Assembly: GCA_009268125.1 (NCBI GenBank)
Contig: WBOU01000001.1
Location: 372,001 to 436,000 of the forward strand
Direction of reading: 5' to 3'
Source: Chloroflexia bacterium SDU3-3
GTDB taxonomy: Bacteria > Chloroflexota > Chloroflexia > Chloroflexales > Roseiflexaceae
Length of the DNA stretch: 64,000 nucleotides
The notes beneath the pieces were generated by a model. It worked only from the letters and a program-made list of their open reading frames with translations, was not told the origin of the DNA and did not search any database. Each line of letters starts with the position of its first letter. Within the stretch, counting starts at the first letter, position 1. A program made the position numbers and the translations under genes. Positions 39,543 to 42,381 of this stretch are shown piece by piece.

Positions 39543-40421
39543 ATGAGCACAGTACAACGCGGTATCCTCTCGCACACCGAGGCGCGCTCGCTGGGCGGTC
39601 GGCTGACCTACTGGCTGATCTTCGCCTTTCTGCTGGCCCTGAGCCTGGCCTTCGTGTTCCCGTTCTTCTACGCGCTCACCGCCGGGCTGAAGAACAGCGC
39701 CGAGATCTACCGCCCCGGCCTGAACCTGCTGCCCAAGGTGGCGCAGTGGAAGAACTACGCCGACGCCTGGCAGCGCTTCAACATGCTGGGCATGTTCCGC
39801 AACAGCTTCGCGGTGGCGCTGGGCGGCGTGGCGGGACAGCTGCTGATCTCGTCGCTGGCGGCCTATAGCCTGGCGCGGCTGAAGCCGGTGGGCGGCAAGC
39901 TGATGCTGCTGATCTTCCTGATGAGCCTGGCCATCCCCGGCATCGCCTACATCATCCCGCTCTACATCACGCTGGTGCGGCTGCCCATCCTGAACATCAG
40001 CCTGCTGAACAACTACTGGGGCCTGTGGCTGCCCTACTCGGTCAGCGCCTTCGCCATCCTGATGCTCAAGAACTTCTTCGAGCAGATCCCACAGGATATC
40101 TACGATGCGGCGGCGGTGGATGGAGCCTCGCCGCTGCGGATCTTCTTCACGATCACGCTGCCGCTCTCGCGCTCGATCCTGCTGATCCTGGCGATGCTGA
40201 GCTTCGTGGGCCTGTGGAAGGATTTCATGCTGCCGCTGCTGGTGCTGCGCGAGGCCAGCCTGCAGCCGATCACGGTGCGGCTCTACACGCTGGTGCAGAA
40301 CTTCCCGCAGAACCTGCAGCTGGCGGCGGCGTTTATGGCGATGGTGCCGCCGCTGATCGTGGCGTTCTTGATGCAGCGCTATATGAAGGGCGGCATGCTG
40401 CTGGGCAGCGTGAAGGGCTAG
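39543..40421 (+). CDS. ABC sugar permease, MalG-like
   Basis: 292 residues, ATG at 39543 with taggag upstream and 9 bp after the previous stop. Six membrane segments (first: YWLIFAFLLALSLAFVFPFF). The EAA loop is IYDAAAVDGASPLRIFFTI. It ends with FLMQRYMKGGMLLGSVKG, the conserved MalG-type C-terminus that contacts the ATPase. Last recognisable gene of the operon; the tandem repeat region begins 22 bp after its stop. Confidence 0.95.
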   Translation: MSTVQRGILSHTEARSLGGRLTYWLIFAFLLALSLAFVFPFFYALTAGLKNSAEIYRPGLNLLPKVAQWKNYADAWQRFNMLGMFRNSFAVALGGVAGQLLISSLAAYSLARLKPVGGKLMLLIFLMSLAIPGIAYIIPLYITLVRLPILNISLLNNYWGLWLPYSVSAFAILMLKNFFEQIPQDIYDAAAVDGASPLRIFFTITLPLSRSILLILAMLSFVGLWKDFMLPLLVLREASLQPITVRLYTLVQNFPQNLQLAAAFMAMVPPLIVAFLMQRYMKGGMLLGSVKG

Positions 40422-40434
40422 CGGCGCTGGTTTG

Positions 40435-40842
40435 ATGATCAAGCTCGTTGGATTGGCAATAGAACTCGTCTGCACGACGATGAATCTTGTCGGATTGGCA
40501 ACATATCTCGTTGGATTGGCAATAGAACTCGTTGGCGCGACGGTGAATCTTGTCGGATTGGCAACATATCTCGTTGGATTGGCAATAGAACTCGTTGGCG
40601 CGACGGTGAATCTTGTCGGATTGGCAACATATCTCGTTGGATTAGCAATCAATCTCGTTCGCGCGACAACTGATCTCGTCGGATTGTCGACAAAACTTGT
40701 TGGATTGGCAATACATCTCGTTTGCTCGGCGGTGAATCTTGTTTGCTCGGCGTTCAAACATGGTGCCAATTCTGCGATAGCGGGTTCTTGTTGTTGTTTG
40801 GTGTGTGCCCTGCGCGGGCGGCGGCTAGGGGCCTGCCCCTAG
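40435..40842 (+). CDS. Possible protein encoded by 21-bp heptad repeat
   Basis: An open frame of 135 codons from the ATG at 40435, only 13 bp behind the permease stop, no clear ribosome site. Codons 4-108 are fifteen seven-residue units, mostly LVGLAIE, LVGATVN and LVGLATY, giving hydrophobic residues at heptad positions a and d. The tail then runs into a dispersed repeat (CCCLVCALRGRRLGACP), which looks untranslated. The absence of stops follows automatically from a 21-bp unit without a stop, so coding is unproven. Minus-strand frames are open as well. Confidence 0.25.
   Translation: MIKLVGLAIELVCTTMNLVGLATYLVGLAIELVGATVNLVGLATYLVGLAIELVGATVNLVGLATYLVGLAINLVRATTDLVGLSTKLVGLAIHLVCSAVNLVCSAFKHGANSAIAGSCCCLVCALRGRRLGACP
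40444..40758 (+). repeat. Tandem array of fifteen 21-bp units
   Basis: Exactly 315 bp, every unit 21 bp with no indel. Units begin CTCGTT, CTCGTC, CTTGTC or CTTGTT. They alternate in a three-unit cycle of 63 bp, and units 4-6 (40507-40569) and 7-9 (40570-40632) are identical over all 63 bp. Divergence increases toward both ends, a pattern of recent internal expansion by unequal exchange. In the plus-strand reading frame of the array substitutions are often conservative. Confidence 0.95.
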
Positions 40843-40985
40843 CAACCCCGCGAGGGGGCGATGCCCCCTTCGATCCCCCAATTTTGGGCGTTCCCGTGCC
40901 GAAAACTGGCGGCTGGTGTTCGTGCATATGGCCATCAAAACACGAGCAGCACCTTCGCCGCATGGGCCGGGTGGGTAAGGTTCGC
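40805..40985 (+). repeat. Dispersed repeat, copy B (first copy at 1589)
   Basis: Shares gccctgcgcgggcggc, ggtgttcgtgcatatggcca and accttcgccgcatggg with the copy at 1589-1755, in the same order and orientation. The hairpin-forming front part (aggggcctgcccct) is preserved as structure although the sequence differs, which suggests that folding matters. Confidence 0.75.
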
Positions 40986-41009
40986 TCCGTCGCTCTTTTC
41001 CATGACATT

Positions 41010-41110: not shown

Positions 41111-41232
41111 CGCCTCGGCCCTGGTTATTTGACAAGCGGGCAGGGCATCGGTACTATCTCAGCAGAAAGTCGCAGCGCTCTGTAGCCACACCAGCCACGG
41201 GCACGGCGCGCGGCAGCGAGCATATTCGCCAT

Positions 41233-42381
41233 ATGACAAACCTAAAACAGATCGCCGATCTTGCCAATGTCTCTATCCTGACGGCGTACCAGGCGCTGCG
41301 CGAGTATGGCGAAGTAGCCGCCGACGTGCGGCAGCGCGTGCGCCACGCCGCCGACGAGTCGGGCTACACGCTCAACGTCACCATCCGCGATGTGGCCGCG
41401 CTGGCCGGGGTGTCGGTGGGCACGGTGTCGCATGTGCTGAACGACAGCCCGCTGACCAAGCCCGAGACGCGCCAGCGCGTGCTGCAGGCGATCAGCGACC
41501 TGGAGTACCGCCGCAACAGCATCGCGCGCGGCCTGAAGTCGAACCAGAGCCGCCTGATCGGCTACGCCTGGCACAGCGCCGAAGACCCCATCCGCCGCAA
41601 CACTCTGCTCGACCGCTTCCTCTACGACATCGCGCAGGCCGCCGAGTCGTGGGGCTACCACATCCTCACCTTCGCCCAGCCCGACCCCACCAGCATCCGC
41701 AGCTACGAGGAGCTGATCCAGATGACGCGGGTGGATGGCTTCGTGCTCTCGGACATCGCCTACAACGATGCGCGCATCGCCTACCTGCGCAAGACCGGGG
41801 TGCCGTTCGTGGCCTTCGGCCAGTCGCGCCCCGACTGGCAGATCCCCTCGGTGGATGTGGATGGCCAGCTGGGCATGCGCATGGCGGTGGAGCACCTGCT
41901 GGCGCGCGGGCACGAGCGGGTGGCGCTGCTGAGCTGGCCCGAGGGCGTGCGGATCGGCGACAGCCGCGCCCAGGGCTACATGGACGCCATGCGCAGCGCT
42001 GGCATCGAGCCGCCGCCGCAGTGGGTGGGGCACACCCGCAACGCGGTGGACCACGCGCTATTCGCCACCCAGCAGCTGCTGGCGGCCACACCGCGCCCCA
42101 CCGCCATCGCCTGCGCCAACGACGTGATGGCCTTCGGCGTGATGCGCTACCTAGAGCAGGCCGGCCTGCGCGTGGGCGTCGATGTGGCCGTGACCGGCTA
42201 CGACGACACGCCGGTGGCCGAGCTGCTGCAGCTCACGTCGGTGCGGCAGCCCACCGATGTGGTGGCGGTGCGCGTGATCGAGATGCTGATCGGCGAGATC
42301 CAGGAGACGCCGGTGGCGCGGCGCAATGTGCTGCTGGAGCCAAGCCTGGTGGTGCGGGCCAGCAGCCGCAGCCAGCGCTAG
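41233..42381 (+). CDS. LacI-family repressor with two N-terminal HTH domains
   Basis: 382 residues, about one HTH domain (46 residues) longer than usual. Residues 3-48 are a LacI-type HTH (LKQIADLANVSILTAYQALR, then VRQRVRHAADESGYTLN). Residues 49-105 repeat it in more canonical form (VTIRDVAALAGVSVGTVSHV, then TRQRVLQAISDLEYRRNSIA) with the hinge helix ARGLKSNQ. The periplasmic-binding-protein-like effector domain follows (IGYAWHSAED, VDGFVLSDIAYND, ALLSWPEGVRIGDSRAQGYMDA, AIACANDVMAFGVMRYL, VAVTGYDDTPVAEL). By position it most likely controls the operon at 34514-40421 through the two mirror operators. Confidence 0.95.
   Translation: MTNLKQIADLANVSILTAYQALREYGEVAADVRQRVRHAADESGYTLNVTIRDVAALAGVSVGTVSHVLNDSPLTKPETRQRVLQAISDLEYRRNSIARGLKSNQSRLIGYAWHSAEDPIRRNTLLDRFLYDIAQAAESWGYHILTFAQPDPTSIRSYEELIQMTRVDGFVLSDIAYNDARIAYLRKTGVPFVAFGQSRPDWQIPSVDVDGQLGMRMAVEHLLARGHERVALLSWPEGVRIGDSRAQGYMDAMRSAGIEPPPQWVGHTRNAVDHALFATQQLLAATPRPTAIACANDVMAFGVMRYLEQAGLRVGVDVAVTGYDDTPVAELLQLTSVRQPTDVVAVRVIEMLIGEIQETPVARRNVLLEPSLVVRASSRSQR

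What the first reader, a model, noticed from the sequence alone, without database searches (positions are those of the whole stretch)
40444..40758. Fifteen 21-bp units encoding perfect heptads after the permease genes
The array is 315 bp without a single indel, with a 63-bp super-period and two identical 63-bp blocks. The unit length is a multiple of three and the plus frame reads LVGLAIE, LVGATVN, LVGLATY: hydrophobic heptads that could form a coiled coil or membrane-active peptide. The minus strand reads IANPTRY, VANPTRF, TVAPTSS, a proline heptad. Both are uninterrupted. It begins 22 bp after the last gene of a sugar operon and ends next to a dispersed repeat. It may be an expressed repeat peptide, a protein-binding array near the operon, or a phase-variable minisatellite.
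Basis: partly seen in the sequence, partly recalled or inferred. Interest (0 to 1): 0.65.

Follow-up and report, generated by a model that had tools for sequence, protein, structure and literature searches.

The report
Orphan array of a PQLLE-gene repeat system
The 15-unit, 21-base repeat is not a gene; it is one of roughly 90 repeat arrays with the same 21-base spacing scattered through this bacterium's genome, several of whose repeat families each sit directly in front of a different copy of an unstudied helical protein gene, which suggests an unrecognised system of proteins with private repeat arrays.

Summary
The array is real: 40444-40758, fifteen 21-bp units, no indel, 63-bp super-period. 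The heptad-peptide reading is not supported: no frame shows an excess of synonymous changes, and related arrays in the same genome carry TGA stops in the heptad frame. The array is one of many. In 1.66 Mb sampled of this 6.76-Mb Chloroflexota genome I found 22 non-coding arrays with period 21 (or 42/63), about 90 genome-wide if typical, in many unrelated unit families. The key is a gene family. The genome has 11 full-length members of NCBIfam NF052641 ('PQLLE', function unknown), and 10 of the 11 have a 21-bp array upstream; in six it ends 8-37 bp before the start codon. Each gene's array has its own unit, and every such unit recurs in at least one gene-less array elsewhere. The window array belongs to the family of the PQLLE gene on contig 5 (core CTCGTTGGAT). 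PQLLE occurs in 3 of 158 genomes of the class and is predicted to be an all-helical tandem duplication of a 105-aa module. Best mechanism: each PQLLE protein binds its own direct-repeat array, as ParR binds parC, with orphan arrays as extra sites. The linkage is shown; the binding is inferred. Copying without function remains a serious rival.

The parts
40444..40758 (+). Array of fifteen 21-bp units, core CTYGTYGGAT, written on the strand that matches the CTCGTTGGAT form of the contig-5 PQLLE family
   Evidence: family assignment
40507..40632 (+). Two identical 63-bp blocks (units 4-6 and 7-9)
   Evidence: sequence; 63-bp period
40435..40842 (+). Open frame over the array (ATG 40435), judged not to be a gene; its end runs into the dispersed repeat
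39543..40421 (+). Sugar ABC-transporter permease (BPD_transp_1), ends 22 bp before the array
40805..40990 (.). Copy of an abundant dispersed intergenic repeat; approximate limits
   Evidence: sequence; similar copies beside arrays; dispersed repeats abundant
41233..42381 (+). LacI-family regulator, next gene after the array; promoter-like site at 41129-41157

Best explanation
The feature is a non-coding orphan array of a PQLLE/21-bp-array system. SHOWN: PQLLE genes have 21-bp direct-repeat arrays upstream; each gene has its own unit sequence; arrays with the same unit, without a gene, lie in intergenic DNA elsewhere; the window array is a diverged member of the contig-5 PQLLE gene's family. 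INFERRED: each PQLLE protein (two tandem copies of a 105-aa helical module) binds the repeats of its own array side by side on one face of the helix (21 bp = two turns), forming a nucleoprotein array that controls its own gene and occupies the orphan arrays as extra sites, for example for chromosome organisation. This would work like ParR on parC, but with an unrelated protein.
For: 10 of 11 full-length PQLLE genes have an array upstream against 1.2% of other genes within 400 bp (binomial 8e-19; the paralogues are not fully independent). Every gene-linked unit recurs in at least one orphan array: P1 1, P2 2, P3 1 or more, P4 3, P5 1, P6 1, P7 1, P8 5, P9 3, P10 10. Arrays of one family start and stop at the same phase in unrelated flanks, with the core at both ends. 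Indels are depleted: 5 events against 577 substitutions from consensus, versus 0.08-0.12 gaps per mismatch in dispersed repeats of the same genome. No RNA-fold, dyad or half-unit signal in the units and no Rfam match, so a directional DNA repeat fits. In one genome of a second genus, a PQLLE gene carries 9.5 units of 21 bp. Window array fits the contig-5 family: p about 0.001 for each of its three members, all other families 0.03 or worse.
Against: No binding data. The predicted fold (pLDDT 94) has no recognised DNA-binding motif and no informative fold match. Protein pI ranges from 4.8 to 10.2. Similar proteins do not have similar units (Mantel r about 0; P1 and P2 are 62% identical with unlike units). 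Orphan arrays lie in intergenic DNA of every orientation with no consistent target. One full-length PQLLE gene has no array. Several array families have no PQLLE gene. In the second genus the array lies inside the reading frame.
Confidence: 0.42

Rival explanations
1. Non-functional minisatellites: 21-bp arrays expand and are copied between intergenic sites by recombination or slippage, and PQLLE loci are merely where each family began or was retained. The constant period is inherited or due to the expansion mechanism.
For: Orphan positions look random with respect to gene orientation; units do not track protein similarity; many families lack a gene; two loci hold near-identical 6.4-copy P10-type arrays.
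Against: Arrays stay upstream of 10 of 11 PQLLE genes although the proteins are 21-62% identical; indels are depleted, though the repeat finder favours indel-free arrays; ends fall at fixed phases.
Confidence: 0.28
2. RNA-level system like type III toxin-antitoxin: the array is transcribed as repeat RNA that binds the PQLLE protein, and orphan arrays are extra or decoy RNAs.
For: Repeat array directly upstream of the gene, as in type III TA systems (PMC6315513); in six loci the array ends 8-37 bp before the start codon.
Against: Units show no more RNA folding than shuffled units and no Rfam match; PQLLE is all-helical with almost no invariant residues, unlike an endoribonuclease; for P1 a promoter-like sequence lies downstream of the array (read by eye).
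Confidence: 0.08
3. Coding heptads: the arrays encode heptad-repeat peptides, for example as the N-terminus of PQLLE proteins.
For: In G010 the 9.5-unit array lies in frame inside the PQLLE reading frame; in P2, P3 and P8 the frame through the array is open.
Against: P4 has stops in the array and an RBS-ATG after it, and P1's frame opens only after the array; the heptad frame is closed in related arrays; no synonymous excess in the window array.
Confidence: 0.06
4. Selfish or mobile arrays: the arrays are small elements inserted as discrete units, mobilised by a PQLLE-dependent or other machinery.
For: Sharp, phase-fixed ends in unrelated flanks; intergenic scatter.
Against: No obvious target-site duplication at the array edges printed; PQLLE has no enzyme-like conservation; copy number varies within families.
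Confidence: 0.12

Closest known systems
PQLLE family, NCBIfam NF052641
   Same: The genes beside the arrays score above this family's cut-off.
   Different: It is a name for proteins of unknown function; no PMC paper in the library mentions it, and I found no description of the arrays.
ParMRC partition systems (ParR/parC)
   Same: Direct repeats at the gene, private to each paralogous family; ParR homologues bind only cognate parC, and repeats of 10-20 bp are reported (PMC9426499).
   Different: ParR is typically ribbon-helix-helix and paired with the ParM actin; PQLLE is an all-helical duplicated module, no ParM-like gene was identified beside the arrays, and the system is dispersed over the genome with many orphan arrays.
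Type III toxin-antitoxin systems (ToxIN)
   Same: Tandem repeats directly upstream of the protein gene (PMC6315513).
   Different: No structured-RNA signal, no endoribonuclease-like protein, 6-16 units of 21 instead of a few of about 36.
Plasmid iterons with Rep proteins (from memory)
   Same: Direct repeats of about two helical turns next to the gene of the binding protein.
   Different: Dispersed arrays across the genome; no Rep homology found.

Membership tests
PQLLE-linked 21-bp array system (as defined here) | Non-coding tandem array with unit period 21 bp | tested here: met
PQLLE-linked 21-bp array system (as defined here) | Unit belongs to the family of a PQLLE-gene-linked array | tested here: met
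   Contig-5 family, p about 0.001, best of 24 units tested; moderate strength
PQLLE-linked 21-bp array system (as defined here) | Adjacent PQLLE gene | tested here: not met
   Neighbours are a permease and a LacI regulator; hence 'orphan'
PQLLE family NF052641 (for the array-linked genes) | Score above the curated cut-off of 80 bits | tested here: met
   all 11 full-length own genes, the contig-5 gene by summed segments
ParMRC partition system | Ribbon-helix-helix ParR protein | tested here: not met
   All-helical model with two 56-residue helices; no Pfam ParR match
ParMRC partition system | Protein binds the direct repeats | not testable with these tools
   needs binding assay
Type III toxin-antitoxin | Structured repeat RNA antitoxin | tested here: not met
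Type III toxin-antitoxin | Endoribonuclease toxin | tested here: inconclusive
   No Pfam or significant PADLOC/PHROG match; helical fold, few invariant residues
Expressed heptad-repeat protein | Excess of synonymous change between units | tested here: not met

The most novel reading that the evidence does not exclude
A new class of array-binding proteins: ten or more PQLLE paralogues in one cell, each recognising a private 21-bp address repeated 6-16 times at its own gene and at up to ten other loci, so that one genome carries many orthogonal protein-array pairs that organise or mark the chromosome.
Probability: 0.3. Interest if true: 0.88.

Novelty: categorically new. Interest (0 to 1): 0.7.

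Why it matters
If PQLLE proteins bind their arrays, one bacterium holds ten or more orthogonal protein-DNA address pairs. That would be a new kind of chromosome organisation or self-regulation, a natural experiment in the evolution of binding specificity, and a source of orthogonal array tags. It also gives a first functional lead for a protein family that has only a name, and shows that intergenic minisatellites can belong to a gene-linked system.

Tried and rejected
Coding heptads: rejected on stops in related arrays and lack of synonymous excess. RNA hairpins, dyad symmetry and 10-bp half-units: no signal over shuffled units (the minus-strand fold column used shuffles of the plus-strand unit, so only the mean is used). 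Rfam: none. Window array in plasmids: none. PQLLE P6 in phages and plasmids: none. Profile scan of viral contigs could not be run. Fold search: only generic long-helix matches; the best-ranked rows are within the range expected for helical bundles, so no relative is claimed and none excluded. Another gene family beside the gene-less array families: none found. Orphans of the G010 array in G010/G013: none, but those genomes are only 71% and 83% complete. Operator of the neighbouring operon: not favoured, because orphan arrays show no preferred gene orientation.

Full report
OBSERVATION. The array stands at 40444-40758: fifteen 21-bp units, 315 bp, no indel, with a 63-bp super-period and two identical 63-bp blocks. 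It starts 22 bp after the stop codon of an ABC-transporter permease that follows a GH31 glycosidase and a second permease, and lies about 470 bp before a LacI-family gene. Its exact sequence occurs once in the 6.76-Mb, 51-contig genome. I take the genome to be a Chloroflexota: relatives have sizes that match Roseiflexus RS-1, Chloroflexus aurantiacus and Herpetosiphon (from memory), which suggests the Roseiflexaceae; I did not prove this.

NOT A PEPTIDE. In the heptad frame 7 of 21 distinct changes are synonymous against 6.2 expected, and no frame shows a significant excess. The related arrays on contigs 5, 15 and 21 carry TGA stops in that frame. The open frame has no Pfam match and ends inside the dispersed repeat. 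Open frames are expected by chance when a 21-bp unit is repeated.

A GENOME-WIDE CLASS. I tiled 1.656 Mb of the genome. Among arrays of at least four copies and score 120, 22 of 29 have period 21, 42 or 63; nearly all other periods lie inside genes. Counting from 3.5 copies there are 22 non-coding 21-bp-type arrays, about 90 per genome if the sample is typical. Units fall into many families with no detectable common ancestor, while within families mostly 15-20 of 21 positions agree against 8-12 for most shuffled pairs. Samples of 200 kb each of three relatives without the gene family held 0, 0 and 1 such array where about 2.7 each would be expected at this genome's density.

THE GENE FAMILY. 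Comparing the genes next to arrays showed one protein family with four members in the sample, all four directly downstream of an array. It is NCBIfam NF052641, 'PQLLE family protein', function unknown. The whole genome has 11 full-length members and several fragments. Ten of the 11 have a 21-bp array of 6.4-16.5 units upstream. In six (P3, P4, P6, P8, P9, P10) the array ends 8-37 bp before the start codon, mostly with a visible ribosome-binding site between; in the others the distance is roughly 70-320 bp. Of 1,314 sampled genes 18 have an array within 400 bp upstream, two of these being PQLLE genes; at the remaining rate of 1.2%, ten of 11 has probability 8e-19. The paralogues may share ancestry, so this is not a count of independent events, but the proteins are 21-62% identical and the arrays have mostly unrelated units. 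A gene fragment on contig 11 also has 3.4 units directly before it.

PRIVATE ARRAYS WITH ORPHANS. A composite of all gene-linked units, searched against the genome, found gene-less arrays for every one: P1 one, P2 two, P3 one or more, P4 three, P5 one, P6 one, P7 one, P8 five, P9 three, P10 ten. Arrays of one family begin and end at the same phase, with the core at both ends, in unrelated flanks. Orphans lie between genes of every orientation and beside unrelated housekeeping genes. The window array matches the contig-5 family (gene-linked unit and its contig-15 and -21 orphans) with p about 0.001 each; other families do not match. A three-unit relic at contig 2:432452 is its closest sibling by eye. 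So the window array is a diverged orphan of that family.

CONSTRAINT. Across 48 arrays I counted 577 substitutions from consensus and five indel events; dispersed repeats in the same intergenic DNA show 0.08-0.12 gaps per mismatch. Indels are thus depleted about five- to ten-fold. The repeat finder favours indel-free arrays, so this is supporting, not decisive. Since frames are not conserved, helical spacing is the more likely reason. Units show no excess of RNA folding, dyads or half-units.

THE PROTEIN. A 13-sequence alignment gave a confident model (pLDDT 94, pTM 0.80): two copies of a short helical hairpin plus a 56-residue helix. The halves align over 105 residues (E 5e-20). No fold match is informative, and Pfam, PHROGs and PADLOC give nothing significant. 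pI ranges from 4.8 to 10.2. Only 3 of 158 genomes of the class carry the family, and none over the cut-off in an evenly drawn 400-genome phylum sample besides the home genome. In one genome of the second genus (G010) a PQLLE gene has 9.5 units of 21 bp inside its N-terminal reading frame and another has a degenerate 21-bp repeat there; G013's has only longer-period repeats upstream.

MECHANISM. The geometry (direct repeats at the gene, private to each paralogue) is that of ParR/parC, where each ParR binds only its own repeats (PMC9426499). I propose that PQLLE proteins bind their own arrays, regulate their genes and occupy orphan arrays. Binding, regulation and any role in chromosome organisation are inference. 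The lack of correlation between protein and unit similarity, the acidic paralogues and the random orphan positions count against it. Membership of ParMRC fails (no ribbon-helix-helix protein); membership of type III toxin-antitoxin fails on RNA structure.

VERDICT. The array is a doorway to a gene-linked repeat system that I could not find described in the papers held here; subscription journals and preprints were not searched.

Noticed in passing
window 41233-42381 (+): LacI-family regulator that carries two tandem LacI helix-turn-helix domains: Pfam LacI matches two stretches, the best being residues 50-95. Unusual.
   Followed up: partly
window about 40805-40990 and intergenic regions genome-wide: Very abundant dispersed intergenic repeats, some palindromic (CCTGCGCGGGCGGC...CTAGGGGC) and some of the ACCAAGGCACCAAGA type, often within a few hundred bp of the arrays (1,738 matching pairs among 485 intergenic regions).
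   Followed up: partly
L092:12910, L137:12547, L138:7928, L014:1479, L089:2840, L100:13696 and relatives: 21-bp array families for which no PQLLE gene was found; they may belong to lost genes or to another protein family.
   Followed up: partly
L213:1262-1460: In genome G010 of a second genus the 21-bp array lies in frame inside the N-terminal reading frame of the PQLLE gene.
   Followed up: partly
L167:17041-17291: A 12-copy polypyrimidine 21-bp array (CTCCTATCTTCTCTCTCCTAT) in G045, a relative without PQLLE genes.
   Followed up: no
L233:1463-1658: A nine-unit P10-type orphan array lies 246 bp upstream of a gene that reads like Cas1 (recognised by eye).
   Followed up: no
L211: The only full-length PQLLE gene without an array upstream (contig 23:241-864).
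   Followed up: partly
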